This document shows positions 1 through 50,135 of a DNA stretch of 64,000 nucleotides, in pieces (within the stretch, counting starts at the first letter, position 1; each line of letters starts with the position of its first letter). Source of the stretch: Porphyridium purpureum (lineage: Eukaryota; Rhodophyta; Bangiophyceae; Porphyridiales; Porphyridiaceae); NCBI GenBank assembly GCA_008690995.1, contig VRMN01000001.1, forward strand, positions 3,720,001-3,784,000, in the 5' to 3' direction. The notes below the pieces were generated by a model that was not told the origin of the DNA, did no database searches, and saw nothing but the letters and a program-made list of their open reading frames with translations. The translations under genes were made by a program, and so were the position numbers.

Positions 1-1063
1 GCACAACTGCGAGTTGCCGGCTTGTCGCACACGCACGTTCAGCAGCAGCGCAAGAACGTTCCCGGCCTAGAGTGGAAAGAGCGGCAGTCGCGCCACAGGA
101 CCACACGCGCTCCGCCTTGACCATCCTCCCACGTACATTCCGCCAGGGGAGAGATGCCCGCCACACTCGCGCCACGCTGGGAGGACCGACACACGTTCTG
201 CAACAACTCTTGAACACAACGCCTGGCGCCTGGCGCACCCACGCACCCGCTCGACATGGAAAACAAAGCAAAGTGAACAACTCGTCCAGAATTTGGAGCG
301 GATTTCATGGATGCGCCACGGCTGCGTCACCTGTATGGTGTCATTCTTTGCTTCGAAGGTCCTTGCCAAGAGCAGTCAAACGTTGTGTCTGACCTTGAGT
401 ACCCCAAGGGTCAGGCACCCATGTCGGATGCCCCGGTCAACCGAGCGAGCCAGGGCGTCTCCAACCACGCAACAAAGATATTGTCATCGTGGATTGGTCT
501 CCGCACTCCCAATCCTTTTCTCTCGGTTTCGTCGGGTCAGAAGCATCCGGACCCCGGCGGTACCAAGCGCCATGGGTGAATGGGTGGGACCACTCGATTA
601 TTTCATGCGAGCTTCGTCGCGCCCGGTCATGCCTTGCATCGAAACTCCCTCAACAAGACAACGAGTGTAGTTCTTCGAGGACCCAACTTGCGCAGCGCCA
701 ATCTCGTACGCCGGCACAAGCCGCATCGATTCCCAAGGTGTCAATACGGCGCGCACTTCTGCCTTCCCGTGGGATTAACCTACCACTACGTCGGGGCAAT
801 TCGTGCGCAGTCGGCACGTCTAGGCGTGATTACTCACGCTCCCCTTCCGCTTCTTGCACACATCGCGTCTACACGCCTCTCGTCTCGCTGACCCTTCTCT
901 GAATCGGCCCTGTCTTCCCTCACCGGCAAGCACCGATCCGACTGGTTTGCCGCTAGTAAATCAGGTCATTATACCATACAAATCAAATGATAAGCGCGTG
1001 CGGGTCCGACAATGCGACGGTGCCACTTGTACCTTTCTCAAAAGAAGATGCACGCTCGACAAC
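1..1063. other. Left flank, no gene recognised
   Basis: Only short overlapping open frames on both strands, none with a recognisable motif. The frame of the downstream methyltransferase gene is open from about 854 but has no ATG before 1064, so the last 200 bases are most likely 5' leader. I see no tRNA, repeat array or clear TATA box here. Confidence 0.5.
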
Positions 1064-2989
1064 ATGTCAACGCGCGACAGCGAGCGTGCGGCGCTGGGCG
1101 GCGTCACGCCCACACAAAGCGAAGCGCTGGTCGCGTCGCTTCTGGACGCGGGCGTGTGCGAAAGCAATCCGTACTCGGTACTGAAAAACGATAACGTGTC
1201 GAGCGCCACGGCCGAGCGCTCGCACATTGAACGATGTTGCCCGTGTGAGGCTCAGTCCAGCTCGTCACTGGCAGTTTCATGCTGCTCATACCTTCACGAG
1301 CAATGTAAATATGCGCAATTTGTGGAGAACGGGTTTGATGCGTTGCCCGCTCATGTGAATCCTGGCGGTGCGCACGCAGGGACCATGGCCGAGTCGCGCG
1401 GCTCGAATAAGCGCGCTCAGCTCTCCATTCTGGTTCGGCTGTGCACCGAGCTCTCACGTCGGAAGCGACGCGCCAAGCATTCTGCGGCGGCGAGCCAGAC
1501 GCAGAAAACATTCACCGTGGTAGACTTCTGTGGTGGGTGCGGCCATGTGGCGCTCACCCTCGCTGCCGTACATCCGGGCTGGCACCTGACTGTCGTCGAC
1601 GTGAACCCCAGGGCGCTTAGCATTGCTATGGAACGCGCACAGGATGCATCACTAGACAACGTCTCTGTGTGGGCTGGACATGCCGCTGACTTTCATGGCC
1701 AGTTTGACCTCGCAGTCGGTCTGCATGCGTGCGGGATGGCATCTGACGTCGTGATTGCCAGTGCATTGAGCCGGCGCGCTCCGTTTGTGGTTGTACCTTG
1801 CTGTACTGGAAGTGTCACTCCACGCAGTGACCAATTTCTGAGCTCGTATCGGTACACGCGGAACAAGCAATTCTGCTCCGACAATGCGAGCAAGCGTGCG
1901 GTTGTTGATGCTCAAGCCGAGCCTGAGGAAGCGATGCTCAGTCGCAGCGCGCGTTCAGCGGTCTTCTCGGAGCTCCTGTCAGACGAATCATTCGCTGATC
2001 TCGCTCGAGCCGCCGATTTTGAGACGCGTATGGTCAGCGAGGACGCGCGATACTGCTGGCGGAGGATGGCGAAAACGTTACTCGAGCTCGACCGCTGCTT
2101 TGCGGCAGGAGAAAGCCTGTATTGTACGCGCCTACTCAAGCTCCGACCGCTGTGTGCCTCGCCGAAGAATGATATTCTCGTGGGGTGGCCGCAAGAAAGT
2201 GACCGTGGCGCTGACGGCCAGGTGTGCACGTGCCGCCAAATCAGCACCGCATTTGAGCCCGACCTGCTCATGGAACATATCTGTGAGCAGGTGAGAAACA
2301 ATGTTGATTTCTCAGTCGAGCATTTTGAGCGCTTTTCGTCGGATCTGAAGGCTTTCAAGCGCCTGGACTTGGGCAATGAGCTCATTCTGGCAGATGGCGT
2401 GGGCAAGAAGATTCGAAAGGCAGCGCACGCGGCTGCCGAGGAGTGCGGCCTCTACCATCACAGCCGCGGCGAAGGAAAGCAGCGCAAGGTGTTGGTGCGA
2501 AAATCACTCATGTGGCCATGGTGGCCAGCTGATGGTTTCTTTGCGTTGTTTGGCGATCAAATTGAACGCGTCGCTGCTCGTGCGTTTTCCGTAGAACAAC
2601 TTGTTCCTGCGGCGTGGGCAGAGCAGAGACGCCAAGCACGAGGCGCTGCGCATCATCTGACGCTGCTCGGGCCAGCGGACGTGCGCCGCTGTGGGTATGC
2701 GCGAGCGCACGCAGCACTGACCTCGTGGGCAGGCCGGATGCTGGATGCGCAACGTCAAGCCGAGATCGACGCGCTGGGCATCGGGTTTGCCAGGCGGTCG
2801 CCCGCCGACGGTGGCGCGGATCAGGCCTCGTGCTGCTTTGTGGTGGTGCAGTGGCGCGAGGGCCAAGCGTTCCGTCGCCACTTGCAGCTGCCCGAAACAG
2901 ACTTCCACATCACGCTGGGGTTTTCCGGAAGCGGCGACGTGCACGGCGTGCGCAAGGACGCCTCGACCCTGTCGCACCGCTGGGAGTGA
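1064..2989 (+). CDS. GSTCD-like methyltransferase fused to R3H and 2H phosphoesterase-like domains
   Basis: A predicted 641-aa SAM-dependent methyltransferase starting at the first in-frame ATG. Residues ~148-165 hold motif I (VDFCGGCGHVALTLA), ~220 has LHACG, ~244 has PCC and ~363 has CASPKNDILVG; this order of blocks is what I associate with GSTCD/Methyltransf_32 proteins. Residues ~419-480 resemble an R3H nucleic-acid-binding domain (KIRKAAH, Arg and His four apart). Two HxT motifs follow, HLTLL at ~531 and HITLGF at ~615, the paired signature of 2H phosphoesterases, which act on cyclic phosphates or 2'-5' links in RNA. The combination suggests RNA modification or repair, but the substrate is not shown. 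Motif I is intact, so the methyltransferase is probably active. The GSTCD name is a family resemblance; the R3H and 2H calls rest on short motifs. Confidence 0.8.
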   Translation: MSTRDSERAALGGVTPTQSEALVASLLDAGVCESNPYSVLKNDNVSSATAERSHIERCCPCEAQSSSSLAVSCCSYLHEQCKYAQFVENGFDALPAHVNPGGAHAGTMAESRGSNKRAQLSILVRLCTELSRRKRRAKHSAAASQTQKTFTVVDFCGGCGHVALTLAAVHPGWHLTVVDVNPRALSIAMERAQDASLDNVSVWAGHAADFHGQFDLAVGLHACGMASDVVIASALSRRAPFVVVPCCTGSVTPRSDQFLSSYRYTRNKQFCSDNASKRAVVDAQAEPEEAMLSRSARSAVFSELLSDESFADLARAADFETRMVSEDARYCWRRMAKTLLELDRCFAAGESLYCTRLLKLRPLCASPKNDILVGWPQESDRGADGQVCTCRQISTAFEPDLLMEHICEQVRNNVDFSVEHFERFSSDLKAFKRLDLGNELILADGVGKKIRKAAHAAAEECGLYHHSRGEGKQRKVLVRKSLMWPWWPADGFFALFGDQIERVAARAFSVEQLVPAAWAEQRRQARGAAHHLTLLGPADVRRCGYARAHAALTSWAGRMLDAQRQAEIDALGIGFARRSPADGGADQASCCFVVVQWREGQAFRRHLQLPETDFHITLGFSGSGDVHGVRKDASTLSHRWE

Positions 2990-11932: not shown

Positions 11933-13243
11933 TCAATGGGCAATCTCTGAGGGCGCCTGCTGCCCGCCACGCGAATTTACAATGGTCTCTTGGTCCGCAC
12001 CAAGCAACTGGACTCCGTTCGCATGTTCCAGCTTGATCGGCGCAGAGATTTTTTCCGGGGCCAGCTTGTTGAGTACAAGCGCCTCGACGTCAAAATCGGT
12101 GTCCGGCCCTCCATACCTGGCTTTGATCTTACTATGCGTTTTGCGTTCAGTTACCCGGACCCATATCGCGTACGGACCTCGTTCTGGGAATGGGTTCGTC
12201 TCATTATGCTTCCCGTACGTGTGCTTCACGAACTCGTTCGTCGTAAGGTTGCGCCACATCAAGTAGAGGTGGAAGCCTGTCAGGCCACCTGCGAAAGCTA
12301 AGCCTAAGAAACAGTACAACATCAGTACCAACAGAGCCCCGGATCCCCAGAAGCCCAGCGCTTCTCGAAACGCTTCGCCAGAGCTCAGCTCGGGCATGAT
12401 TCTTTGGAACCGCCGCGTGTTTTCAACCAGTTGGACTGCGCTCATGGCGATGGCGAGCATCAGCATTACTGTTGTCGAGCTTACAAAAATGAAAAAGGAG
12501 CGATAGTTTCTTCTCCCCACGCAGTTACCCAGCCATGGACTAGATATGGATCATTCAAAAGATGGCACATAAAAGCGCAGGGGTATACTTGGTCAGCACC
12601 ATTGCATGCATTTCGAGAAGAAAAAAGGAAGTCACGAAGGCGGACGCGGTTGACTGCGACACTGCTGCGTCATTTCGAGACCACCCAGAAGAAAGCAAAA
12701 AGCAGAGCGCTAATGAGAAGGAAGGCGATGGAAAACGAGAAAAAAAGCGTCCTCAACGTACCAGTGGTGGTCAAAGCGCTCCACGCAATTATTACAGACA
12801 TTGCAATGGATGGCGCGCGGAGGTCTCCAGTGGCGGCAGGTTTCGCAGTACTTGACAACGACCTGCGTATCATTTATCAGCACTGTCTGCTCGCGCATGA
12901 CATGCTCATTGCCCTGCATGCTGGGCGGCGCGACGCTCTGCTTTGGAATGATGCCCGGGTCATCTGAGGTGGCCAAGACAAAGGACACCAACACCGTTAT
13001 ACTCAGCGGCAGCGAGACAGCGAGCACGACCCATCCAGCCGGCGTCCAATACACACACAACCACGCCACGCAGATCCCGTAGTACAAGCCGAGCGGCAGC
13101 AGCATGCCGACGAGCGTGCCGACGGCGTTCCAATAATCCGGGCCTGTCAGCGCGCGGCCGCTCCACCACAGGCGCGAGCGCGTCTCATACGCGCCGCGCT
13201 TGCAGCGCCCTGCGTCTAACCGCGTCCCCACCTTCACCACCAT
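11933..13243 (-). CDS. DHHC-type palmitoyltransferase, two exons
   Basis: Coding exons are 13243-12762 and 12539-11933, 362 aa. The intron (12540-12761, 222 bases) starts GTACGT and ends CTAG, and splits the catalytic motif itself: exon 1 ends in ...RFDHH plus TG, exon 2 supplies the rest of Cys followed by PWLGNCVGRRNYRSFF, restoring DHHC-CPW. Protein S-acyltransferases of this family transfer palmitate to cysteine. Membrane pairs lie at ~45-95 (VGMLLPLGLYYGICVAW, VVLAVSLPLSITVLVSFVL) and after the motif (SSTTVMLMLAIAM, LVLMLYCFLGLAFAGG). DPG, the Cys-rich zinc motifs, TTNE (TTxE) and an NPF near the C-terminus are all present. Best match is the ZDHHC9/14/plant PAT group. Start chosen at ATG 13241-13243. 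Confidence 0.9.
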
Positions 13244-14096
13244 CTCCCCACCCCCACCCTTCCTCCTCTCTGCCAGAAGCACAGACCCACACAACCCCCG
13301 CCCTCACCACCTCCCAATCATCCCGGTCGAAACTCTTTTCTCAAAATCGATTTCTTCTCCACTGTACATGCTCCCACACTAACTGTACCCCAACACTCAA
13401 CTTTAACCTAAATGGTTAACGGTTACCATGACGAATCGGTTCATGACCAAATGACCGAATAGTTTGACGGCTTAACAGCCTAATGGCTTATTGGCTTATT
13501 GGCTTATTGGGTAGCCGTGAACCGATAAGAATGGTGTTGGGGAGAGGAGAATAGTTGGGTGTTGTTCAGGTGGCAATCGAAGCGTGGTGCGCGTGGGTTG
13601 GGAAGCAGATAGACAGCCTGCGCATGACGCTGGATGCCGACCGCGCGTGGCCGCTGTGGCGGCTGGTCGGCAGAGCGAGTGAGTCAGTGATCTGGCTGGA
13701 AACGATCGACGCCGAGCATGGGTGTGGCGGGCAGGTTGCATGCATGTCTTGCCGGCGAGTGAGAAGTTCTGAGCGCGTCCGCAGCAGCCACTTTGGGGGA
13801 GGTACAGTTGTAGACAAGTCGGGGGTGTACAGTGAGACCGAGAAAAGCAGGCGGCGGATTTTTGGAAGCGGGGAAGAAAGAGCCACAGGGAGTTGGTTGG
13901 GCTTGGGAGGGATGTTTGCAAGTGGATGCATCGACACACGACGGTGACCGTGGTGGCGGTGGTCGTGTCGGCGGTGGATGCAGTGGCTGCGTGCGCGCGG
14001 GTGGGCCACGCACGGGGAGCGAGCTCGTGACGGCTGGATTCGGTCCCGCGTCGCTGCGATGCGCCGAAAGCACGTGCGCGCAAACGGGGTCCGAGC
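13244..14096. promoter_or_regulatory. Divergent promoter with CTGTAC, AACGGTTA and CCAATAAGC elements
   Basis: Between DHHC (-) and MED16-like (+). CTGTAC occurs at 13362 and 13383, and GTACAG at 13802 and 13827. GGTTAACGGTTACC lies near 13414, and GGCTTATT is repeated three times in tandem at about 13485-13509. Both element types recur elsewhere in the window. No gene is supported inside. Confidence 0.5.
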
Positions 14097-17000
14097 ATGA
14101 AGCCGGTGTACTTCGTGGAGGTCGCGGACGGTGGGGGCGAAGGGACGTCGCGGAATGTGGTGGCTGGCGCCGCGGGGTCGCGGCACGTGCGCGCGCAGAG
14201 CGTCGCGTGGAACGAGCTCGATGACCTTGTTGCGTTCAGCACGGAGCAGGGAAAAGTGTACGTGTTCCACCCAGAGCTGCCGAATGTGCTGTGCGAACTG
14301 GAGGCCGCAGATAATGCGCCTGTCCAGCGAGTCGTCTGGCGAACCCCGCGCGACTTTATGCCACTCCTTGTGACGTGCGATGTCAACCACCAGTTGGTGT
14401 TTTGGAAGTGCGTGCAGCACCGCGTCAACCTGTGGGAAGTGTGTCTTGTACACGATCTCGGCAAGCCTCTAGTATGCCTGGGGTTCACGCCAGACTCCAT
14501 TACCCTTGTCTGTATCACAGTGTCTGGCGAGATCATTGCCCTGGCGCCGCGCTTGCGCGAGGAGGAGCCCGGCATGTTGTCCTCAGCGTATGAGATGGTT
14601 CCACCACTGAACGAGCAACCAAGCCCAGCCGCGTGGCTGCTCGACCGAGGGATCAAGATGGCCGCGTTGGCGGGCTGCCAGGCACGTGAGCACGCGAATA
14701 CATTGTACGCCGCGATTCTCATCAATCAGGACGTTCCCTTTGTCGTGATTTGCCACATTGCTACGTTCACGATGAGCAACCAGGGCGCGAGCCCTACACT
14801 TGTTCACGTGCTCCGTTATCTGGCCGCATTCTCGCTGCAAATTCCGGGCGCAGGCGGTGTCAAGGCATTGGAGATTTTGCCAGACGACGGTATGCTGTAT
14901 GCTGCCTACGAGAAGGGGCTGATTGCTTGCTGGAGCATGCAAGATCCAGTACCGTTTACATCCATGGCCGCGGTAATCGATCCCGAGCTTGCAGAATTTG
15001 GCTTCTCGGTACGAGCCACTTTCCAAATTCCTTTTCAGGACAGCCACTTTGTTGCCGCGCTGGCGGTGTCGAACAAGAGCAAGTTTGTTCTCGTGTCGCT
15101 TTCGAGCTGTTCACTTTTGCTCCTGGATTACCAAACTTTGACTGTACAAGAAAGCTGGCAGGGTCCTAGCACGTCCTGTCCTTCACCGAACCGGAACGTC
15201 CGAGAAATTGCAGGCATGGGAAAGGATGCAGGTGACGGAGTTGCTGGCGGCAGTATTGTCGACGACAGGGATATGGCATGCGGTCCTTTTTACCCGTTTG
15301 CCCATAGTTGCGAGGCCATGGAACTGGAATTCCTGGATCCGAACACCATAATCCAAAACGGCGCGTTTCCAACGCCATTTTCCGGTCCTATTGACGACTA
15401 CAGCGGTCAACGGCAGAGTCAGACCGTGGCTGGCGCTGCCATTACGCAAACATATGGAACTCGACCGGGCAGGAGGCCTGACCAAGCGATGGCACATGAT
15501 AGAAGTCACGGCTTATCCGGGCTTGCACTCAGTCCAGTCGGGGCGTGCGCTGTTGGAGTATCGGCATCTGGTTGTATTCGAATGTTAATTTTGGATCGTA
15601 CGCTGAAAAACCCAGAGTTGCTTGCAAACGGGCTCATCCGTACAAGCAACCGCGGCATGCGGCGTGGTGGCTGGGATATTTTTGCAAGCACATCCGTAGT
15701 GTTCCAACTCTCGTCGTCAGCGCAAGGTGACTGCAATGAGAGTGGCAGCAGCGGTCAGAGCGATGGGATCAAAAACCTTGCTGCGTCGATGGTGCGGCAC
15801 TTGGCTCAAGGCGACGCCTCGCGTGCAGAATCTTTGCGTTTTATTATGCTTTCTTCGATCGACGCTGACATGGGTGCTATTTTCGCGGCCCGGCGGTTGC
15901 TGGAGCTCGCCATGGAGGCCATCCAGCACACCGCGCCTGCGGTAATTATGGACCAGTTTGCTCGCGCAAAGGAGAGTATGGGAAGCTCTCTATCGTCCCT
16001 GGAAAATGTCACGCAGAAACTGCACGAAATTACAGCTCCACTGCAAGTGACCGCATCGGTGTTTGAAGCCCTTCCCCTCGTCGACTGGATTTTATTGCTT
16101 GTCACGGTGTGGCTCAAGCGAGTGGCCAAGTCTTTGGTCTCGTCAAACAATGCTTCCGAGAAAGATACGCCTGAAATGGATCCGCGCTGGCGTGCAGTGT
16201 GCGACAGCGAGCCGTGTGTGCTGCAGGAGCGGTCGAGCATTGTGACCGATGGTGCGCTGAGTCGCGCGCTGCGCTCTGCAGCGTTTGCGGCGGCATGTAT
16301 TATGCGTTTGTACGAGCAGAGTTTCCCGGACGACTGCAAGCTGGCACTGTTGATCGAGCGAGGCATCGAACAGATGCAGACATCCGTATTCAGCATTCGG
16401 TATTGCCGCTTTGGAATCAAGGAGTGCACTGACCTTGTCGCGTGCATGTGGGATGTGTCTCGCGCATTCGAGCACAAGGATGCTAACAATGGCAATGAGC
16501 AAGATATAAGTCGGCAGGGAGGACGCACTGCAATGATTTTCCAGGCGCTAGCGCGCCACCCGTTCGCGGCGACAGCCATCCAGTGTCGCGGTGCCAAGCT
16601 GAATATTCACACGGCCGAGTGGGCACTTGGCATTCGAGGTGCGCCCAGTGGCGCCGGTTTCATAAATTCCTTTTCTCGGCGTCGTTGTCTGGCGTCCGAC
16701 CCGAACGTGAAAAAGGAGCTCGTTTACGACTGCATCACGGGCGAACCGCTGTCTGCGTCGAAACCGCTGCGGCGCTGCTCCTACTCGGGTCTTTTTTCTG
16801 TCGAGGTGGAGAACTTGCGCGACTTGCCCAAGTGGCAAGCGCGTTGGGAACTCGAATCGCCCTTTGGGGCGCCCTGGATACGAGTACCATCGCTTGACCA
16901 TTGTTCATTTCAAGTGAACTGGGCGTCCACAAACAAGCGCGCAACGCCGGACGACGAGTATGGCGTTTTCACACCGGCCGTAACTGGACGTACAGCGGCT

Positions 17001-18155
17001 CCTGAAGGTGGTCCGCATCCACAAGGTGCATTGCCCACAAAAACAGAGGCTGTAGGGCTTCCGGAATCCGATGAACCGTCACAAATTCCTTCAAGAAGTC
17101 TGTTGACGAGCGACGGTGTGCATGGAGCACTCATCCACGGAAGAGTGGATGCTCGCGAAAACACGGCAGAAGCAGCCACTGGGGTGGCACCATCGAAGGG
17201 GGCTGATCAGGGAATCGGTGCACATTCACGGCAGCAGCAGCCGCAGCGCTTTTCCCTCCCTTTCGCACCATCGGGCGGAGCCGGATCTGGTATGACCAGC
17301 ATCTTAGATACAGACGATATGGTCTCTCAGCGGTCGTCAGTTTTGTCGCATCAGTCGGCTCATAAGACAGCTAGTCAAAAGAGTGGGAGAACGAAGGGCA
17401 AGTGGAGAAACGGCGGTGGCAACGTCGGCGTTGCGAAGGCTCAACGGAAGAGCCCGGGCTCTCAACAATCGCGTAGAAATCTGGCCAAGGGGAAAGAAGG
17501 CTCTGAAGAGGACTCGACGGGACACTTGAGCGCTTATCAACGCGGGCCATGCGGTTCCACGAGTCATGTTGTCACAGCGCAAGAACATTCGGCTTCAATT
17601 GGGGGAAGCGTTCCCAGCCGGCCGCCGCCTGCGTCGGTTCCGTCGTCCGTGCACCTCGGGGGCTCTGCTTCTGGTCTTTCTGGCGCACAGGCGGAGAGTG
17701 AGGATGCCACGGCGTTAGCAAAGGCGCCGCCCTTACCAAGCGAGATCTGGCGCGGGAAGTTCCGACTCTTTGGACCTGATGGCAAAGTAACATTTAGCGT
17801 CAACTGTGCAGCAGTGTCACTGGAGCGGCAGGGCTACCAACCGCTGCTAGATGCATCGAACTGGCCTGAATGTCTCGATTGCAGTGCAAATCAGCTGAAA
17901 AGTGCGTCCGAAGTGTGGCCGCGGATGACACAGCCGGATGCGCGCTGGTATGCTCGGATGGTGATGCTGGACACCCAAATGCCAGCGTCGCGCAAGATGG
18001 AGGAGCTCTTGCGAGTCATCATTCAGCGAAGGCTCGTGTTTGAGTGCAGTTCGCGCGCTCAGCATGGAACTCTGTTTTTGTGGGGTATTGAGCACGAGCG
18101 CCAACCGACCATGTTTGGAATCTATTTGCCGCACGAGCTACCCGGAGACATGTAG
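14097..18155 (+). CDS. Mediator tail subunit MED16-like protein with C-terminal ACID/PTOV-like domain
   Basis: 1352 aa, single exon, start ATG 14097. Residues 1 to ~500 form a WD40-like propeller (SVAWNELDDLVAFSTEQG, VQRVVWRTP, LVFWKCV, GLSGLALSPVGACAVG). A helical region follows to ~885. At ~891-930 comes CSYSG...WQARWE...GAPWIRVP, which parallels the Cys-rich, W-x2-RW, W-x-RVP ending of animal MED16. A disordered Ser/Gly/Gln-rich linker spans ~930-1215. Residues ~1217-1352 (IWRGKFRLF, NWPECLDC, ARMVML, GTLFLWGI, MFGIYLPHE) resemble the activator-interacting ACID/PTOV domain of MED25. MED16 and MED25 are both Mediator tail proteins, so a fusion would make sense. The MED16 call is fairly good; the ACID call is tentative, with a SPOC domain as the alternative. 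Confidence 0.65.
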   Translation: MKPVYFVEVADGGGEGTSRNVVAGAAGSRHVRAQSVAWNELDDLVAFSTEQGKVYVFHPELPNVLCELEAADNAPVQRVVWRTPRDFMPLLVTCDVNHQLVFWKCVQHRVNLWEVCLVHDLGKPLVCLGFTPDSITLVCITVSGEIIALAPRLREEEPGMLSSAYEMVPPLNEQPSPAAWLLDRGIKMAALAGCQAREHANTLYAAILINQDVPFVVICHIATFTMSNQGASPTLVHVLRYLAAFSLQIPGAGGVKALEILPDDGMLYAAYEKGLIACWSMQDPVPFTSMAAVIDPELAEFGFSVRATFQIPFQDSHFVAALAVSNKSKFVLVSLSSCSLLLLDYQTLTVQESWQGPSTSCPSPNRNVREIAGMGKDAGDGVAGGSIVDDRDMACGPFYPFAHSCEAMELEFLDPNTIIQNGAFPTPFSGPIDDYSGQRQSQTVAGAAITQTYGTRPGRRPDQAMAHDRSHGLSGLALSPVGACAVGVSASGCIRMLILDRTLKNPELLANGLIRTSNRGMRRGGWDIFASTSVVFQLSSSAQGDCNESGSSGQSDGIKNLAASMVRHLAQGDASRAESLRFIMLSSIDADMGAIFAARRLLELAMEAIQHTAPAVIMDQFARAKESMGSSLSSLENVTQKLHEITAPLQVTASVFEALPLVDWILLLVTVWLKRVAKSLVSSNNASEKDTPEMDPRWRAVCDSEPCVLQERSSIVTDGALSRALRSAAFAAACIMRLYEQSFPDDCKLALLIERGIEQMQTSVFSIRYCRFGIKECTDLVACMWDVSRAFEHKDANNGNEQDISRQGGRTAMIFQALARHPFAATAIQCRGAKLNIHTAEWALGIRGAPSGAGFINSFSRRRCLASDPNVKKELVYDCITGEPLSASKPLRRCSYSGLFSVEVENLRDLPKWQARWELESPFGAPWIRVPSLDHCSFQVNWASTNKRATPDDEYGVFTPAVTGRTAAPEGGPHPQGALPTKTEAVGLPESDEPSQIPSRSLLTSDGVHGALIHGRVDARENTAEAATGVAPSKGADQGIGAHSRQQQPQRFSLPFAPSGGAGSGMTSILDTDDMVSQRSSVLSHQSAHKTASQKSGRTKGKWRNGGGNVGVAKAQRKSPGSQQSRRNLAKGKEGSEEDSTGHLSAYQRGPCGSTSHVVTAQEHSASIGGSVPSRPPPASVPSSVHLGGSASGLSGAQAESEDATALAKAPPLPSEIWRGKFRLFGPDGKVTFSVNCAAVSLERQGYQPLLDASNWPECLDCSANQLKSASEVWPRMTQPDARWYARMVMLDTQMPASRKMEELLRVIIQRRLVFECSSRAQHGTLFLWGIEHERQPTMFGIYLPHELPGDM

Positions 18156-23009: not shown

Positions 23010-24225
23010 TCACATACCGAACGAGTATTTTACAAACGGCTGGGATCGCAATGTGTCAAAGATGTACACTACCTCCGATGCGCTGTCTACATGCACGGTG
23101 ATAATCACTTCAACATACCGCCCTGCCACGCCTATCTCTAGGTCATCCAGCGGGACTTCGCGCTTCAGCACGCGTTGCAGCTCACCGTGAACGCGACTTG
23201 AAAAGTCCTTCCCCTTTCCCCACACTCTGAAGGTATACAGACACGGGAACGTCATCGCAACATCGATCGCAGCGGGCCCCGGGTCCAAGTCGTCGAGCAT
23301 TTTGCGCCTCCCGCGTCGGGCCCTTGTTTTCAAGATTGGCTGCGGGGATGTCGCAGCAGGTGAGGATGGTGCAGTGTCCGTTATGAGCTCAACGAGCTCA
23401 TCGGAGGACCGTGCCTTCGGATTTGACAATGATCGATTTTCCCGCTCGGTGTCAGTCCTCTTCGCGTGGGCTCGAGCAGTTGAGCCTCGCGCTTTTACGC
23501 TCTGAGACGACGACTTCGCTTCCACATAGCTACTCATCACTTGCACGCAATCAGCAGGCGGGCCGGCACCAAAGCCCTTACTCCATTGCAACATTTCTGA
23601 CGGCGACTTACCCAACGACAAATCAAAGAGGGCCTTCGCAGCATTCTGTTTGCTCTTTACCTCTGCCTTTGAATTTGAGTCGCGCGAATGCAAAGCCTTG
23701 ATGGCGCGCGCGTCTGCTTTTCCCGCGTAAGCGACTTCCACCTCCACCTCCTCGTTCAAAATCCAATCCTCTGGTTTTCGCGTGTGCTGGATCGCGTAGT
23801 CCATTGCATTGCGCGCATTATCATCGTCATACTCTGCATAGGCACTCAAGTCGGGGGACCAAACACCTGCTTCCCGTGGTCTCACCTGCGGCAAATCTGC
23901 CACAGGATTTTCGGGGTCATCCACTGGCTCTGGCAATGAAGGCGCCTCAGTAATCTGAAAGGATTCCATCAGCTCGTCTGTGTCATCATGATCAGATACG
24001 TCATTATCGTCTTCATCATCGTGTCTACTGTCGTCGAGTGTCTGCAAAACTTTGGCAGAGGACGCGGGTTGAGAAGTTTGCGGATCGACTGTTTCGTCTT
24101 CATCATCGAGAAGATCTTGGTCTTCTTCCTCCTCCTCTTCCTCTTCTTCATCACTCAGACGGTCATGGTCCTCACCACTATCTGTATCGACATCGTCTTC
24201 TTCCTGATCCTCTTCCTCTTCCTCC

Positions 24226-24269
<44 letters not shown>

Positions 24270-24767
24270 ACCATCGTCATCACCATCGTCATCAAATAAT
24301 GCGCCTCCCTCCCGTTCCGTGGTCGCGCCGGCATCACCATCTTCCACGACAACGGCGGGCGGCAGCTCGATATCCTCGAGCAAGGTCCAGAGCAGTTCAT
24401 CATCAGACGGCACCCTCTCGTCGTGCTCTTCTCCGCTGGCCCGCGCAGCCCCTTGTTGTCGTCGTCTTCCCTTTCTATCTTGCGGGGCAGTTTGCTGGTA
24501 CGCGCTACTATCATTATACTGATCTGACAAAGCGGTCCGGCTTGTCCGCAACCTTGCACCCGCCTTTAACCTAACGCGCAAACCCACTGGTCGAACAGCC
24601 AGCAGGGATGCGTTGGCGGACGTCGACACGCTCGTTTGCCGTCGGCCGTACCCAACGACCTCTAGTCCAACATGGCAGAAGCACGGTCCTATGCGCTCTT
24701 TTCCATGGAACGGCGAACCTACGGCGCTGTCTGCGGCCGCCGCAGAGCTCGCGCTGAGGTTCGCCAT
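23010..24767 (-). CDS. DUF493 (YbeD-like) domain protein with long acidic tract
   Basis: 585 aa, start ATG 24765-24767. The last ~80 residues (FPCLYTFRVWGKGKDFSSRV ... IGVAGRYVEVIITVHVDSA) match the DUF493/YbeD fold, a small ACT-like domain known from bacteria and plastid proteins. Residues ~165-285 are almost all Asp and Glu, coded by a hexanucleotide-like GAT/GAC microsatellite at about 24220-24295. The N-terminal ~85 residues are Ser/Ala/Arg-rich, suggesting plastid targeting. Function is unknown; the acidic middle may bind a basic partner. Confidence 0.7.
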
Positions 24768-25695: not shown

Positions 25696-27201
25696 TTACT
25701 TCAGTCGCTCGAATGCGGCGGTAAGGTCCTTGATCAAATCGGCGGTATCTTCTAGCCCAATGTGGAGGCGCAATGTCTTTCCGTATGTGTGGTCGTCATA
25801 CTGGAAAGTGTCGACGGAACGAGCCGAGTTGATGTTGCAGGGCATGATCAGACTCTCAAACCCACCCCATGAAAACCCAATGGAAAAGAGTGCCAAGCCG
25901 TCAATGAAGCGGTCCACGGCATCCTGCGCAAACTCAGCTTTCAGTTGAAAGGTGAAAAGCCCATTTGAGCCAGAAAAGTCGCGCTTGAATAGCTCATGTT
26001 GCGGGTGTGACTGTAGACCCGGATGGATCACGCGAGCCACCTCAGGACGGGTCTCCAACCAGTTTGCCACTTCCAACGCATTCTTTTCGTGCTGGCGAAG
26101 ACGGACCCCGAGAGTGCGCAGACCGCGCAACGCAAGATAACAATCATCTGGGCCGGGAGGACATCCAAGCATTGCGACGCTCAACTTGACCGGTCGATAT
26201 GTCTGTTCTGTGCACGCAATGAGACCAAGCATAATGTCTGAATGGCCACCGATGTACTTGGTGGCTGCGTTGTAAGAAACATCCGCGCCCAGTGCGAGCG
26301 GTTGATACAAAGTCGGCCCATACGTATTGTCAACTATCACTTTGGCCCCCAACTCGTGCGCAAGTTCACACAGCGCGGGCAGATCTTGCACTTCAAACGA
26401 AAGCGACGCAGGTGATTCGCAAAACAGGACTTTGGTCTTCCCCGGTTTAAATAGGGAGCGCAAGTTGTCCACGGGCGTCGCCGGAGAATAGTAAGTCACA
26501 TCGACACCGAAACGCTTCAAAAACTTATCACAGAAAGAGCGTGTTGGGTCATACACGGCATCGGTCATCAGCACATGGTCACCGGCCTCCACGAACGCGA
26601 GAATCGATGCGTTTGCGGCGGCCACACCAGATCCTACGGCGCAGGCGTTATGACCACCTTCAATAACGGCAAAGGCCTCTTCAAGTGCCCAGGATGTGGG
26701 CTGACCGTGTCTTCCATACCACAGGCCCGTGAACGGCCAGTCTGACGAAGCGTATCTGAGCGCCTTCATTGTCGGAAATGTGACCGTGGATGCATGATAT
26801 ACGGGCGGATTCACCACTGACCTACCATACTCATCTGTAGTCCACAAGTGCGGCGCGTGTCCGCCCTTGATCAGCTTGGTCGCCATACCATACTGCTCCA
26901 GCTCACCTTCGTAGCCCGAATTTGATGAGCGTGGCGACGCGGGCTCGTTGTTTTGTGCATTTGCAGGCTTCGCATCCATGCTCAGTTTAGCGCAGCTTCG
27001 TACGCGTCCTCGAAAACACTCCCTTGATCGAGACTGCGCGAACAGCAGCTGCTGCTGTGGATGCACACAGAACGAATGGCGCAGATACTGCGTCCCCGAC
27101 GCGAGTCTGCCGGACGCCTGGTCGCGCACCGACAATAATCCCAACCCGACCCACGCACATTCACCAGACATGACCTTGATGCGCGCTGGGTCTCCACTCA
27201 T
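25696..27201 (-). CDS. Cystathionine beta-lyase, proteobacterial MetC type, copy 1
   Basis: 501 aa from ATG 27199-27201. PLP enzyme of the Cys/Met metabolism family. Motifs: YHASTVTFPTMKAL, LWYGRHGQPTSWALEEAF, VGSGVAAANASILAFVEAGD, CESPASLSFEVQDLPALCEL, VDNTYGPTLY, and the PLP lysine in NAATKYIGGHSD at about residue 315, then SIGFSWGGFESLIMP. These follow Escherichia/rhizobial MetC rather than the plant-type lyases. The reaction would cleave cystathionine to homocysteine, pyruvate and ammonia. The first ~100 residues look like an organellar transit peptide. It is a tandem paralogue of the gene at 27348-28715. Confidence 0.85.
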   Translation of the reverse strand: MSGDPARIKVMSGECAWVGLGLLSVRDQASGRLASGTQYLRHSFCVHPQQQLLFAQSRSRECFRGRVRSCAKLSMDAKPANAQNNEPASPRSSNSGYEGELEQYGMATKLIKGGHAPHLWTTDEYGRSVVNPPVYHASTVTFPTMKALRYASSDWPFTGLWYGRHGQPTSWALEEAFAVIEGGHNACAVGSGVAAANASILAFVEAGDHVLMTDAVYDPTRSFCDKFLKRFGVDVTYYSPATPVDNLRSLFKPGKTKVLFCESPASLSFEVQDLPALCELAHELGAKVIVDNTYGPTLYQPLALGADVSYNAATKYIGGHSDIMLGLIACTEQTYRPVKLSVAMLGCPPGPDDCYLALRGLRTLGVRLRQHEKNALEVANWLETRPEVARVIHPGLQSHPQHELFKRDFSGSNGLFTFQLKAEFAQDAVDRFIDGLALFSIGFSWGGFESLIMPCNINSARSVDTFQYDDHTYGKTLRLHIGLEDTADLIKDLTAAFERLK

Positions 27202-27347
27202 GGCGTCGCTCCACAAATCACTCACTTCCACACAGCGCCCGCTTCTCCCCCACAAGGATCGCTCTTTCCCTTAGTTTATTGCCGACCACTGTCGCCGACG
27301 GGTACAAGTTTCCGGCGCAGATTCGTCGTTCTTCAGAGTTGACCGGT

Positions 27348-28715
27348 TTATTCTCTCCCATTCAAGCAATCGAAAGCAGCGAGCAGGTCGTGGATCAAGT
27401 CCTGTGGGTCTTCGAGGCCGACGTGCAGGCGCAATGTTATGCCAAAGGTGTGCTCATCATAGACAAACTTGGAGACGCGGCGGCTGGAATTAATCCTACA
27501 CTGCAGAATTAAGCTCTCGAAGCCGCCCCACGAGAAGCCGAGCGTGAACAACGTTAGGCCGTTGATGAAGCGGTTGGCGTCGTCTTGTGAATATCGAGCA
27601 TGCAGCTGGAACGTAAATAGACCATTGGAGCCAGAAAAGTCACGTTTGAACAGTGCGTGCTGAGGGTGTGAACGCAGACCGGGGTGGATTACTCGCACGA
27701 CTTCGGGTCGCGATTCCAGCCATTGGGCCACCTGCAGACCGTTCTTTTCGTGCTGTTTGATGCGCACGCCGAGTGTACGGAGACCCCGTAATGCAAGGTA
27801 GCAATCGTCTGGACCGGGAGGACACCCAAGCATCGCGACACTTCGCTTCACTGCCGTATATGTTTGCTTCGTGCATGCAATCAATCCCATCACGATGTCT
27901 GAGTGACCGCCAATGTACTTGGTGGCTGCGTTGTAGGAAACGTCCGCACCAAGCGCGAGTGGCTGATAAAGTGTCGGCCCATAAGTGTTGTCGGCAATCA
28001 CTTTGGCACCAAACTCGTGCGCAACTTTGCAAAAGGCGCGCAAGTCCTGAACTTCGAAAGAAAGCGACGACGGCGACTCGCAGAAAAGCACTTTGGTTTT
28101 CTTGGATATGAATAGAGTACGCAGCTCCTCTGCTGACGCAGTTGGGCTATAGTAGGTAACCTCAACGAAGAAGCGCTTCAGAAACTTGTCACAAAATGAC
28201 CGTGTTGGGCCGTACACTCCGTCGCTGACCAAGACATGGTCACCGCCCTGCACGAATGCTAGAATAGATGCATTGGCGGCCGCGACACCTGAGCCCACTG
28301 CGCACGCCTTGTAAGCACCCTCAATCACAGCGAATGCCTCTTCTAGAGCCCACGAAGTAGGCTGACCGAATCGACCATAATACCAGCCTGAGAGCGGGCT
28401 TTTGTTGGCATGGTTCAAAGCTTCCACATTTGGGAAGGTCACTGTGGACGCATGATACACAGGCGGGTTCACGACCGATCGACCATACTCATCACTTGTC
28501 CACAAATACGGTGCATGCCCTCCTTTGATCAGCTTGGTGGCCATTCCGTACTCACGAAGCGCATCGTGTTGAATCTCGGCGGACTGACTCGATTCTTCTG
28601 CACTTGTCATTACAACTCGCTCCGAACGCATGCCATTCGGACACCTGAGCGCTTGTTGAGGAGCCGACAGTACAGCAAACGAACTCAACACGAATGCAGG
28701 CCGTCCAGACATCAT
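27348..28715 (-). CDS. Cystathionine beta-lyase, proteobacterial MetC type, copy 2
   Basis: 455 aa from ATG 28713-28715 (a second ATG follows at once). Closely similar along its whole length to copy 1: EYGMATKLIKGGHAPYLW, YHASTVTFPNVEAL, WYYGRFGQPTSWALEEAF, and NAATKYIGGHSD with the PLP lysine at about residue 266. Differences are concentrated in the presequence and the loop after YYSP. Both copies keep the catalytic residues that I can recognise. Tandem head-to-tail arrangement, 146 bases between copy 2 stop and copy 1 start, points to local duplication. Confidence 0.85.
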   Translation of the reverse strand: MMSGRPAFVLSSFAVLSAPQQALRCPNGMRSERVVMTSAEESSQSAEIQHDALREYGMATKLIKGGHAPYLWTSDEYGRSVVNPPVYHASTVTFPNVEALNHANKSPLSGWYYGRFGQPTSWALEEAFAVIEGAYKACAVGSGVAAANASILAFVQGGDHVLVSDGVYGPTRSFCDKFLKRFFVEVTYYSPTASAEELRTLFISKKTKVLFCESPSSLSFEVQDLRAFCKVAHEFGAKVIADNTYGPTLYQPLALGADVSYNAATKYIGGHSDIVMGLIACTKQTYTAVKRSVAMLGCPPGPDDCYLALRGLRTLGVRIKQHEKNGLQVAQWLESRPEVVRVIHPGLRSHPQHALFKRDFSGSNGLFTFQLHARYSQDDANRFINGLTLFTLGFSWGGFESLILQCRINSSRRVSKFVYDEHTFGITLRLHVGLEDPQDLIHDLLAAFDCLNGRE

Positions 28716-28812
28716 GCCAGTGGGAAAAGCGTGCGCACACTGTGGCACAAGACATTCTCCGGCAGAATGCCATTCGCGTTGTCGTGCACATTTGCGCAAA
28801 AACGGTGGAACG

Positions 28813-42286: not shown

Positions 42287-45200
42287 TTACACGCTCAAAT
42301 CTGCTGTTTGCGGCAGCTTTCTACCATGGAACGTTCGAAGAGGCACGCTCGTGATCCCTAAAGCCGCCAATGATTTCTGTGAGACAGAGACATGGTGTTC
42401 AGGGATTTGGACACCTGACGCCGACGCCTCGCGCGCAATATATTCAAAGCGCTGACACCATGCTTCCAGCAGCACTGGGTCCGGCACAATGTGCAATGCG
42501 GCAAACGACCAAATCACGTTCGAAAGTTCAAATGTGTTCATTGCGCGCACCGCACAGTGCAAAAGATCCATCATGACGCCGAGCAACGTGCCACTTGGCT
42601 TTAGGTTCTGCTTGGCTAGGCACCAGAACAGCACGGACACGGCTTCGCCGTCGCAGGAGCTCTGTTTTTGAAGAGCGTGTGCGCGGAGAATGCATTGCAA
42701 GAGCAGCCCCGACTCGTGTCGGACATGCAGGCGCATAAGCGCGAGACTCAGCATGCTAATTTCGCGCCCAGAACCTCGGTGGTTCTGCAGCTCCTCCATC
42801 GCCGCATCGCACATTTTCTGGAGAAAGCGATCGTCCGGAACAACAACGAGCCGACTGCACGCAAACAGTACGCGTGCAATGTCACTGATGGACGTCAGCT
42901 CACGAGAGTCCAGCTTCGATTCAAGCGCATAAGTCCAGCGATTCACGATCAAAGTGCCTGGCCACCAGCCCAAACGCGCGACCGACCAAAACGTATTCAC
43001 GAGAGCGAGCGTATCAAATCGGTCGCAGCTCAACTCAAAGGCTAAAAGCCAGCGCTCCAAATACCTGGTGCAAGGTCCTTGGCTCACTCGGGGTTGGTTG
43101 ACCAATCGCGCTGAGTCCTCATGGTACTGCAGATGGACGTTTTCGTTGCCTTCAACACAAAAGAAATGACTCTCGCGCGCTTTTTCGGCCGCCTTCTCTG
43201 CTGTTTTCGCTGCCTGTCCAGCGCTCGTGTCCTCTGGAACCGCAAGAATCAGGTCGGTCATTGCAGAAAGAACGACCGAGAGTTGCTGTGGGGTAAACTG
43301 CCGCTTGCGAAGCTCAAAACTTTCCCACCACGCGTCCAAGAATGAGTCCGGTGGACTTAGACCGAGCCTTGCACATGCGTGCAAACAATTGGCCATTGCG
43401 TGCGGCTGCATGTCTGCGGCAGACGCCAAAAACAAACCAAAAAACTCGTGCTGCACCGCCCCGTTTTCGTTCGCAAAAAAGCGTTCCACAACAGGAGCAA
43501 CTCCAGGCTTCATTGTGAGCCCGGCCAGAGACCACCAAGCGACGGAGAGTTCGGGCGCCGAAAATTCAGTCATGCTCGCTCGGATGGACGATGTGAGCTT
43601 GTCCATGAAAGGCTCCGACGGTATTCGATTTTCGAGCTTGGCCACTGCCCAAATCGTGTTCGCGAGCGACTGGGAAGAAAATTGGATGAGACGCGCCACG
43701 CACATGCGCTCCCACATGTCCCAAAACAGCTCCGAGTCACGTCCCTCGACTCGAGGAGAAATCTTCGCAAACGCCCAACCGATAAGAGAAATTGACTGGG
43801 CGCTCACAAGTGCGTCCGATTTTAGCACACCCTGAGGGTGTACGCGAAGATGAAGCGCTTGCGAGAAAAGCTCTGCGCTTGTACTCTGAAGCTGACGGGT
43901 GACGAACGGGTCAACCACAAACAGTTCAAGTTCGGAAAAGATAGCCAGCGCGTACAGTGTGTTTGAAAGCTCAACAGAGGAAAACGATGCAAAGTGACGC
44001 AGGCATGCACGAGAGCATGCGGAGCGAAAAAGAAGAACGTCACGCTGAAGTTCCTCATCACATTCCAGTTCGACGTGAAAATCTGCACTTGCGTACGACG
44101 CAAGCTTGGCGAGACCCCACATTGTATTGGCCGCAGCAGTACTCTTCATGGCCTCCGAGCTAAAGGATGCAAAGACGCTCATCGAACGGCGCAAAACGTC
44201 TCGCAACGAACCTAGCCGTTGCCCACGTCCGATCACCCACGGCCCATCAGCACTCGCGCCGCCGCACGAGAGGCTGGCGGTGGCCCAGACGGCCATGGAT
44301 AATTGCTGCGGTGTCGCCTTGTGTGCGACATGAACAAAGCGCTGCGTCCACGTGAGCAAGAACTCGTGATCCCAGCTCAAAATCGAGCTCAATGCGAGCG
44401 ACGGTTGGTCGAAGTCTTCTGCACTATTTTGCGAGCAGTGCGCATGTTTGGCTAGTTTGGCGAGTCCGTGCACAACGGTACATAAGCTCTGTATGTTAGA
44501 ATAAGGCAAGCATTCACGCATGGCGACATGCCAGGCGTTCGCAAAGCGCGCGTCCGGATACAGCTTCAGGGCGCCGAGAGAGTACATGATGGAAGAGAGG
44601 GTTCGAGCCAATGTCTGCAACTTGGACGCACGTTGCTGTGGACTCAGTTGCATATTATGCTCCTCCCATAGCGCGCGGAAGGCCGAACTCACCGCTTGCG
44701 CGCCGACGACCATCAGCGCACGCCGAAAGGGCTCGAAGGCCAGGAGCACGTTCACTTCCTGCTTGACGTTTTCGACTGCACCATCGCGGTTCACATACAC
44801 CAGGCAGCTCAGCACTCTAGCGTACGAAACCACATTAAACGCGGGGCTCAGCCCCGCGTCGAGGCGCAGCAGTCTGTCAAGCTGCGAAGCCCACTCCCTC
44901 GCTGCAACGCGGTCGTCTCCGTGCGCGACATGACGCGCGGCGCTCTCGAGCTGTCCGATTCTGATCAGTAAGTCCTGCTTTCGCTGCTCCTCGCTGCTGC
45001 TCTGCGACAGCGACGAATGCAACAGCATGTGATGATCGTTTTCCACCTCGTGCTGTCCACGGATCTGTCTCCGCCTGTGCGAAACACGCACCGCCCGCGT
45101 CCCAGACGGATACGCCGGCATCATTCCATCCTGCAAGGCGCCCTTCCACTCTGAGCGCTGCCTCCTCGACGCTCGCGCGCGCGGCGCTGTCCTCTCCACA

Positions 45201-45409
45201 TGTGTGCATGACTGCCTGCGCGACAAATTCAGCTTCCCGCCTCTACCATACGGGGACAGCACCCCATATGCAATGAACGCCGCGCGGTCCAACCGCTCTT
45301 CGGTCTCCATGTTCTCCCACACCACCATCCCTCCGCTCTCCACCAGCCTCTCTTCCATCAGGATGCTAGTCGTTGTCCGTTCTTCACCTTGACCTTTTCC
45401 CACAAGCAT
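42287..45409 (-). CDS. Octotricopeptide-repeat (OPR) RNA-binding protein
   Basis: 1040 aa, start ATG 45407-45409. The body is a series of ~38-residue helical pairs with the theme L-x-N-x-x-W-A-x-A-K-L: LSMAVWATASL, ANTMWGLAKLASYA, LSNTLYALAIF, LANTIWAVAKLENRIPSEPF, LSVAWWSLAGL, MANCLHACARLGLSPPDSFL, LVNTFWSVARLGWWPG, ELSNVIWSFAALHIVPDPVL. This is the OPR pattern of organelle RNA-maturation and translation factors such as TBC2. I see no RAP domain at the C-terminus. The N-terminal ~130 residues are unlike the repeats and could contain the transit peptide. The RNA target is likely a plastid or mitochondrial transcript. Confidence 0.75.
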   Translation of the reverse strand: MLVGKGQGEERTTTSILMEERLVESGGMVVWENMETEERLDRAAFIAYGVLSPYGRGGKLNLSRRQSCTHVERTAPRARASRRQRSEWKGALQDGMMPAYPSGTRAVRVSHRRRQIRGQHEVENDHHMLLHSSLSQSSSEEQRKQDLLIRIGQLESAARHVAHGDDRVAAREWASQLDRLLRLDAGLSPAFNVVSYARVLSCLVYVNRDGAVENVKQEVNVLLAFEPFRRALMVVGAQAVSSAFRALWEEHNMQLSPQQRASKLQTLARTLSSIMYSLGALKLYPDARFANAWHVAMRECLPYSNIQSLCTVVHGLAKLAKHAHCSQNSAEDFDQPSLALSSILSWDHEFLLTWTQRFVHVAHKATPQQLSMAVWATASLSCGGASADGPWVIGRGQRLGSLRDVLRRSMSVFASFSSEAMKSTAAANTMWGLAKLASYASADFHVELECDEELQRDVLLFRSACSRACLRHFASFSSVELSNTLYALAIFSELELFVVDPFVTRQLQSTSAELFSQALHLRVHPQGVLKSDALVSAQSISLIGWAFAKISPRVEGRDSELFWDMWERMCVARLIQFSSQSLANTIWAVAKLENRIPSEPFMDKLTSSIRASMTEFSAPELSVAWWSLAGLTMKPGVAPVVERFFANENGAVQHEFFGLFLASAADMQPHAMANCLHACARLGLSPPDSFLDAWWESFELRKRQFTPQQLSVVLSAMTDLILAVPEDTSAGQAAKTAEKAAEKARESHFFCVEGNENVHLQYHEDSARLVNQPRVSQGPCTRYLERWLLAFELSCDRFDTLALVNTFWSVARLGWWPGTLIVNRWTYALESKLDSRELTSISDIARVLFACSRLVVVPDDRFLQKMCDAAMEELQNHRGSGREISMLSLALMRLHVRHESGLLLQCILRAHALQKQSSCDGEAVSVLFWCLAKQNLKPSGTLLGVMMDLLHCAVRAMNTFELSNVIWSFAALHIVPDPVLLEAWCQRFEYIAREASASGVQIPEHHVSVSQKSLAALGITSVPLRTFHGRKLPQTADLSV

Positions 45410-49855: not shown

Positions 49856-49866
49856 GGAGAATGGCG

Positions 49867-49886
49867 GTACAGTTAGTGTACTGTAC
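49867..49886. promoter_or_regulatory. GTACAG and CTGTAC pair between methyltransferase and RING gene
   Basis: GTACAG at 49867 and CTGTAC at 49881 form an inverted pair 8 bases apart. The position argues that the RING gene starts downstream of it. Confidence 0.4.
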
Positions 49887-50135
49887 CAGACAGGCTTATC
49901 GGCTCAAACGGCGCGGCGCAACTTGACATTCCTCGAGAAAGGCGTTTTGACCTGGGCGATGGTTGAGGAACGCTGCCACGCAGCTGCCAACGAGGCATAC
50001 AGAAACGTCAGGACGCAGCAGTGCCAGTCGCATAAGCTCGCGCTGTTCAGACAAGGCCTTTTCTTTCTCGTCGCTGCGTCGTGTCGAAGAGCTGCTCATA
50101 TTGCAAGGTTGAGGGAAGACAGAAATGGGACAAAC

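What the first reader, a model, noticed from the sequence alone, without database searches (positions are those of the whole stretch)
14097..18155. MED16-like Mediator subunit fused to a MED25-ACID-like domain
The WD40/helical body ends in the Cys, W-x2-RW, W-x-RVP pattern of MED16 and is followed, after a ~285-residue linker, by a domain resembling the MED25 ACID/PTOV fold. Both subunits sit in the Mediator tail and are functionally linked in plants. A fusion would put the activator-binding domain directly on the tail.
Basis: partly seen in the sequence, partly recalled or inferred. Interest (0 to 1): 0.75.

Follow-up and report, generated by a model that had tools for sequence, protein, structure and literature searches.

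The report
Possible MED16–ACID fusion in Mediator tail
A single uninterrupted reading frame from an unnamed eukaryote probably encodes the Mediator tail subunit MED16 with an extra C-terminal domain that resembles the activator-binding (ACID) domain of its neighbour MED25, which would hard-wire two parts that are separate proteins in animals and plants; the resemblance rests on short motifs and is not proven.

Summary
The 1352-aa ORF at 14097-18155 is real: ATG to stop, no internal stop. Pfam and PDB sequence searches give no MED16, MED25 or SPOC hit. That silence says little: Pfam also missed the Arabidopsis ACID and put Arabidopsis MED16 (recalled) below every cut-off.

MED16: human MED16 (checked against 7emf_P, 23) matches collinearly near both ends: human 62-143 to 54-137 (1 of 2000 shuffles) and 798-837 to 894-931 (3 of 2000; BLOSUM45, 38), with the exact motif W-x2-RW-x9-W-x-RVP (about 1e-7 expected). 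The helical middle gives no signal, and only one of five C-terminal cysteines is kept.

After the motif, where human isoform 2 ends, come a disordered-looking linker (936-1211) and a domain (1212-1352). Three ACID blocks each have their best hit in the whole protein there, in order; 2 of 10,000 whole-protein shuffles score as high, none of 135 decoys does, two SPOC domains score lower. Blocks were chosen after viewing the sequence; plain pairwise alignment shows nothing; both AlphaFold models have pLDDT under 37. A separate MED25 could not be sought.

Verdict: MED16 likely, ACID plausible, fusion about 0.55.

The parts
14097..18155 (+). Single ORF, 1352 aa plus stop: candidate MED16 body, linker and ACID-like domain
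   Evidence: no GTRAGT or GTAAG in the ORF, but other GT-type donors cannot be excluded
14097..16901 (+). Residues 1-935: MED16-like body (propeller-like N-terminal part, helical C-terminal part)
   Evidence: weak generic propeller hits within 25-150; low-confidence single-sequence model with most strands between 46 and 355 (four helices among them) and helices only from 364 to 881; human MED16 anchors
14256..14507 (+). Residues 54-137: N-terminal anchor aligned to human MED16 62-143
   Evidence: score 79, 1 of 2000 shuffles as high, best of 12 other window proteins 64 (BLOSUM45)
15513..15614 (+). Residues 473-506: candidate last propeller blade, aligned to human MED16 431-464
   Evidence: collinear but not significant, 647 of 2000 shuffles and a decoy scores higher (BLOSUM45)
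16776..16889 (+). Residues 894-931: MED16 C-terminal signature, C-x3-G then W-x2-RW-x9-W-x-RVP
   Evidence: human isoform 2 ends 4 residues after the same motif
16902..17729 (+). Residues 936-1211: disordered-looking linker
   Evidence: composition
17730..18152 (+). Residues 1212-1352: ACID-like domain
   Evidence: three-block test; single-sequence structure model failed, pLDDT 35
17742..17768 (+). Block A, residues 1216-1224 (W-x-G-x-F), counterpart of the first ACID strand
   Evidence: best of all positions in the protein
17856..17882 (+). Block B, residues 1254-1262 (NWP), counterpart of ACID NWP/QWP
   Evidence: best of all positions in the protein
18111..18137 (+). Block C, residues 1339-1347 (G-x3-P), counterpart of the last ACID strand
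   Evidence: best of all positions in the protein, 13.5 against 13.0 for the runner-up at 738

Best explanation
The gene encodes a divergent MED16 whose chain runs on, past the usual MED16 end, through a flexible linker into an ACID-like activator-binding domain. In animals and plants ACID belongs to MED25 and reaches the tail because MED25's N-terminal von Willebrand domain docks at the MED16 region. Here the docking step would be replaced by a covalent link: the MED16 body sits in the lower tail, the 276-residue linker acts as a tether (the MED25 linker is given as about 180 residues in mammals), and the terminal ACID-like barrel captures activation domains. Shown here: one ORF, the MED16 C-terminal signature, collinear anchors, linker composition, and ACID motif order. 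Inferred: the MED16 fold, the ACID fold, incorporation in Mediator, activator binding, and any loss of a separate MED25.
For: Motif W-x2-RW-x9-W-x-RVP with identical spacing to human MED16. Collinear human anchors near both ends. Strand-then-helix layout at low confidence. ACID blocks: score 46; 2 of 10,000 whole-protein shuffles and 0 of 10,000 C-terminal shuffles as high; maximum 34 among 135 decoy ORF pieces; SPEN 30.5, RBM15 23.5. Each block's best hit in 1352 aa lies in the last 141 aa, and 0 of 20,000 domain shuffles reach 46. With the plant ACID alone as profile the candidate (55, 1 of 3000 shuffles) scores above human ACID and SPEN SPOC. Functional logic: the MED25 von Willebrand domain nestles between MED23, MED24 and MED16 and ACID hangs on a disordered loop (PMC7921410 passages); in plants that domain is required to join Mediator via MED16 (PMC5467580 passages citing Yang 2014).
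Against: No Pfam hit to Med16_N, Med16_bridge, Med16_C, Med25 or SPOC. The bridge region gives no signal (1064 of 2000 shuffles with BLOSUM62, 390 with BLOSUM45, and decoys score higher). The longer human 700-841 piece gives only 189 and 63 of 2000. Human-plus-recalled-Arabidopsis mini-profiles are modest: C-terminal 32, N-terminal 103 (its best domain on another blade), middle 927 of 3000. With recalled Arabidopsis MED16 alone phmmer gave nothing collinear, and segments gave 1370, 1264 and 24 of 2000 shuffles for N-terminal, last-blade and C-terminal pieces. Only one of the five cysteines in the human C-terminal 44 residues is kept. Candidate against ACID in pairwise alignment is within shuffles in all eight tests, whereas SPEN SPOC against plant ACID rises above them in some (2 of 1000 in one). 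With the human ACID alone as profile the candidate gives 102 of 3000, while RBM15 SPOC gives 20 of 3000; SPEN and RBM15 also beat most of their own shuffles on the combined blocks, 11 and 46 of 3000, so the block test is not purely ACID-specific. Blocks were picked, and two of them set in register by hand, after inspecting the candidate. AlphaFold models are unusable; Foldseek with the body model had no match at E up to 0.001.
Confidence: 0.55

Rival explanations
1. A divergent MED16 with a C-terminal SPOC-superfamily barrel that is not ACID (SPOC-, Chp1- or Ku-like), serving as a phosphopeptide- or partner-binding module rather than an activator target.
For: SPOC, Ku, Chp1 and ACID share one fold (PMC4981400 passages). 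SPOC block A scores 17 on the candidate. SPEN SPOC itself scores 42 on the plant ACID blocks, 6 of 3000 shuffles, so the two families blur.
Against: All SPOC blocks together on the candidate: 28, reached by 196 of 3000 shuffles, with the central helix block at 1.5 and the FPP block at 9.5, against 70.5 and 54 in SPEN, which helped to build the profile. No Pfam SPOC hit, although SPEN is hit strongly.
Confidence: 0.2
2. A divergent MED16 followed by an unrelated C-terminal domain; the ACID motifs are chance plus selection by eye.
For: Pairwise alignment to ACID is within shuffles; blocks were chosen after viewing the sequence; human-only profile 102 of 3000.
Against: The blocks lie in stretches that human and plant ACID share in their own alignment, and all three best positions fall in order in the last tenth of the protein.
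Confidence: 0.13
3. Not MED16: another protein with a propeller and a helical region, where the terminal tryptophan motif arose by chance.
For: The Pfam rows obtained are mainly generic propellers such as EML, IFT140 and CDC20, all below cut-off; the helical region has no MED16 signal.
Against: The exact motif and spacing at the end of the helical body and the two-ended collinearity.
Confidence: 0.12

Closest known systems
MED16 (human isoform 2, PDB 7emf_P; Arabidopsis SFR6/MED16, sequence recalled)
   Same: Propeller-like N-terminus, helical region, C-terminal W-x2-RW...W-x-RV signature; collinear anchors with human
   Different: Human isoform 2 ends 4 residues after the signature and the recalled Arabidopsis sequence ends with it; this ORF continues 421 residues. 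Four of the five human C-terminal cysteines are missing. Not recognised by Pfam Med16 models.
MED25 ACID (human 2xnf/2ky6; Arabidopsis 8y4l_A)
   Same: Elements W-x-G, [NQ]WP and G-x2,3-P in order; placed after a disordered-looking linker
   Different: Attached to a MED16-like body instead of a von Willebrand domain; below detection by Pfam Med25 (8) and by pairwise alignment; no residues after the last block that could form the C-terminal helix described for human ACID (PMC4981400 passages)
SPOC domain (SPEN 1ow1, RBM15 7z27)
   Same: Same fold group as ACID (PMC4981400 passages); W-x-G in the first strand
   Different: SPEN and RBM15 lack WP; the candidate scores poorly on the SPOC central-helix and FPP blocks

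Membership tests
MED16 | Pfam Med16_N, Med16_bridge or Med16_C above cut-off | tested here: not met
   weakly informative, since recalled Arabidopsis MED16 also fails every cut-off, while human passes all three (25)
MED16 | C-terminal W-x2-RW-x9-W-x-RVP signature at the end of the body | tested here: met
   residues 913-931, expected 1.1e-7 by chance
MED16 | Cysteines around the signature (CxxC and CxC in human, five in the last 44 residues) | tested here: not met
   only Cys 894 is kept; whether these cysteines are defining is not established here
MED16 | N-terminal propeller followed by all-helical part | tested here: inconclusive
   strand-then-helix order in a model of mean pLDDT 36.5; weak propeller hits; architecture described in PMC7921410 passages
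MED16 | Incorporation in the Mediator lower tail | not testable with these tools
   needs biochemistry
MED25 ACID / PTOV | Pfam Med25 (PF11232) hit | tested here: not met
   weakly informative, since Arabidopsis ACID (one letter from 8y4l_A) is also missed
MED25 ACID / PTOV | W-x-G, [NQ]WP, G-x2,3-P in order and spacing | tested here: met
   blocks chosen after inspection
MED25 ACID / PTOV | Overall sequence similarity above shuffles | tested here: not met
   human against plant ACID also fails this test
MED25 ACID / PTOV | Beta-barrel fold | tested here: inconclusive
   single-sequence model pLDDT 35 (22)
MED25 ACID / PTOV | Binding of activation domains | not testable with these tools
   needs biochemistry
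MED25 (whole subunit) | N-terminal von Willebrand domain | tested here: not met
   no such Pfam row for the ORF at E up to 10 (4); a divergent one could be missed. The protein is not filed as a MED25.
SPOC | Pfam SPOC hit; central-helix and FPP elements | tested here: not met

The most novel reading that the evidence does not exclude
A natural MED16-ACID fusion in which the activator-binding domain is covalently part of the tail scaffold and the von Willebrand docking half of MED25 has been dispensed with, so that ACID can no longer come off the complex.
Probability: 0.4. Interest if true: 0.65.

Novelty: new variant of a known kind. Interest (0 to 1): 0.5.

Why it matters
Mammalian tail integrity survives loss of MED25 (PMC7921410 passages), and in plants MED25 joins Mediator through MED16 (PMC5467580 passages). 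A lineage that fuses an ACID to MED16 would be independent evolutionary evidence that the MED16 contact is what matters for ACID, and a natural test of whether ACID must be detachable. It would also show that MED25 functions can be missed in genomes searched only for a VWA-ACID protein.

Tried and rejected
Pfam on the whole protein and on pieces: no Mediator family. PDB sequence searches with the protein and two pieces: none, none, and one irrelevant chain at E 0.3. Relatives in viral contigs and genome contigs: 8 and 125 pattern matches, none confirmed; these collections hold viruses and prokaryotes, so this is expected. Metagenome contigs was not scanned because its cap is 0. Structure predictions without an alignment: mean pLDDT 35.2 and 36.5. 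Foldseek against PDB with the second model: 703 matches up to E 10, none up to 0.001; of the 50 printed none is titled MED16 or Mediator, and many are propellers (recalled from their titles); not used as evidence. Pairwise alignment to ACID and SPOC: within shuffles; its end-gap-free 'global' alignments are partly degenerate. hhalign of the two single MED16-type sequences: probability 7.2, E 0.0049, out of register, rejected.

Idea that two genes or exons were merged: there is no stop in 1352 codons and no GTRAGT or GTAAG in the ORF (40, 67). This is weak, because a neighbouring DHHC gene appears to have an intron with donor GTACGT (by eye). GTACG occurs 5 times in the ORF and not in the linker; the linker has two GTATG and one GTGAG (67). 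A second start at Met 1066 or 1075 cannot be excluded either.

Tandem repeats around the gene: one 8-base array at 13484-13510, outside the ORF (51). Rfam at gathering thresholds and ARAGORN on the window: nothing. Literature: searches showed no paper presented as a MED16-MED25 fusion. I saw the listed titles and starts of abstracts only: 2 of 2, 15 of 226, 13 of 13, 7 of 7, 3 of 3, 0 of 0 and 12 of 51; and passages of six papers. Bourbon 2008, which I recall as the main comparative survey of Mediator subunits, is not held. So I cannot say the fusion is unreported.
Full report
What is there. The ORF at 14097-18155 on the + strand runs from ATG to stop over 1352 codons. It holds no GTRAGT or GTAAG (40, 67). 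That does not exclude introns: a nearby DHHC gene on the minus strand appears to be split by an intron with a GTACGT donor (by eye, 66), so this genome has introns and tolerates other donors. The surrounding window holds ordinary eukaryotic genes, many as long single ORFs: condensin Cnd3-type, CPSF100, STT3, Mnd1, LSM (35), GOST-family, galactokinase (64). The window is 52-59% GC in 2-kb steps (3). A unicellular red alga such as Porphyridium would fit; that label is recalled and was not tested. No genome is held (6).

Pfam silence and its control. For the whole protein and its first 501 residues Pfam gives mainly weak propeller hits, all below cut-off (4, 8). The same library finds human MED16 by all three Med16 models, human ACID by Med25, and SPEN by SPOC. 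It does not find the Arabidopsis ACID (25; one letter from 8y4l_A, 27), and it gives recalled Arabidopsis MED16 only Med16_bridge at E 0.0068, below the cut-off (42). So a divergent true member can be missed.

MED16 evidence. Human MED16 isoform 2 was checked letter for letter against 7emf_P (23). It ends 4 residues after W-x2-RW-x9-W-x-RVP (19); the ORF has the same motif and spacing at 913-931. Expected by chance in this composition: 1.1e-7; 0 of 20,000 shuffles carry either of two relaxed versions (34). Segment alignments (BLOSUM45, 38) place human 62-143 on 54-137 (1 of 2000 shuffles), 431-464 on 473-506 (not significant, 647 of 2000) and 798-837 on 894-931 (3 of 2000), all collinear. With BLOSUM62 the C-terminal 44 residues give 12 of 2000 (38) and 84 of 20,000 (34), and among 586 decoy pieces one scored 47, above the candidate's 45 (34). 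The longer human 700-841 piece gives 189 and 63 of 2000 (38). phmmer without filters gives 2.0 bits, E 0.0021 for a one-sequence search, with domains at 91-137, 257-285 and, at the C-terminal motif, 907-931 (33). Recalled Arabidopsis MED16 gives 24 of 2000 for the C-terminal piece at the same motif; its N-terminal piece lands at 54-103, collinear but not above shuffles (1370 of 2000), and its last-blade piece lands elsewhere (43). Two-sequence profiles give 103, 927 and 32 of 3000 shuffles for N-terminal, middle and C-terminal parts (45). A W-D pair at 526-527 (67) may correspond to the DWWD of human MED16 (23); this is by eye and not tested. The helical bridge shows no similarity (38). Only one of the five cysteines of the human C-terminal 44 residues is kept (67). 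I put MED16 at about 0.85, my judgement.

Beyond MED16. Human isoform 2 stops after the motif; the recalled Arabidopsis sequence does too. Here 421 residues follow. Residues 936-1211 are rich in S, G, A and P (67% disorder-promoting against 50% in the body), and 1212-1352 returns to body-like composition (40).

ACID evidence. In their own alignment human and Arabidopsis ACID share short stretches at W-x-G, around QWP/NWP, and at the last strand before a proline (third alignment in 28). I made three nine-residue blocks there, and set two of them in register by hand (W on W, P on P), which differs slightly from that alignment. I had already looked at the candidate, so the test is partly post hoc. 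The candidate scores 46. Of 10,000 whole-protein shuffles 2 score as high, of 10,000 shuffles of the C-terminal 417 residues none; the best of 135 decoy pieces is 34; SPEN scores 30.5 and RBM15 23.5, though these too beat most of their own shuffles (11 and 46 of 3000 as high) (39). Each block's best position in the whole protein lies in the last 141 residues in the right order; 0 of 20,000 shuffles of the domain reach 46; human MED16 gives 18, the body alone 19.5, the reversed protein 22 (53). With a plant-only profile the candidate reaches 55 (1 of 3000), human ACID 39 (21 of 3000) and SPEN 42 (6 of 3000); with a human-only profile the candidate has 37 (102 of 3000), plant ACID 39 (2 of 3000) and RBM15 34 (20 of 3000) (39). 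SPOC blocks give the candidate 28 (196 of 3000) (40). Pairwise alignment gives the candidate nothing for ACID or SPOC; human against plant ACID also gives nothing, but SPEN against plant ACID does rise above shuffles in some settings (2 of 1000 at best) (28). The candidate ends 5 residues after block C (53; length from 2), leaving no room for the C-terminal helix that PMC4981400 passages mention for human ACID (36). The fold was not established: single-sequence models have mean pLDDT 35.2 and 36.5 (22, 60), and Foldseek with the latter gave no match at E up to 0.001 (65).

Mechanism. Passages of PMC7921410 describe MED16 as propeller plus helices contacting the other lower-tail subunits, the MED25 von Willebrand domain lodged between MED23, MED24 and MED16, and ACID carried on a disordered loop (about 180 aa) and not seen in the map. 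Passages of PMC5467580, citing Yang 2014, say the plant MED25 von Willebrand domain is required for joining Mediator via MED16; PMC8417128 passages (59) report MED16-MED25 binding in Brassica napus. In that light a MED16-linker-ACID chain has a comparable geometry without the docking domain. Activator capture by 1212-1352 is inferred.

Verdict. MED16 is likely, ACID is in my judgement more likely than SPOC or nothing, and the replacement of MED25 is untested. Confidence in the fusion is 0.55, interest 0.5, as a new variant of a known kind.

Noticed in passing
854-2989 (+): One ORF combining a methyltransferase domain, an R3H domain and a 2H phosphoesterase domain (Pfam); an unusual-looking domain combination.
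   Followed up: no
11933-13294 (-): A DHHC palmitoyltransferase gene (Pfam on 12710-13294) seems split over two ORFs by an intron with a GTACGT donor, interrupting the DHHC motif (by eye). So the genome has introns.
   Followed up: partly
25696-27255 and 27348-28799 (-): Two adjacent, very similar ORFs that look like a tandem duplicate of a PLP-dependent cystathionine-lyase-type enzyme (by eye; not searched).
   Followed up: no
42287-45409 (-): 1040-aa ORF with only a sub-threshold FAST-kinase-like hit; possibly an organellar RNA-binding repeat protein.
   Followed up: no
23010-24767 (-): DUF493 domain at the end of a protein with a very long Asp/Glu run (translation).
   Followed up: no
49779-50960 (+): ORF with RING-type hits just below cut-off followed by Sel1 repeats; its start overlaps an ORF on the other strand, 49001-49855.
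   Followed up: no
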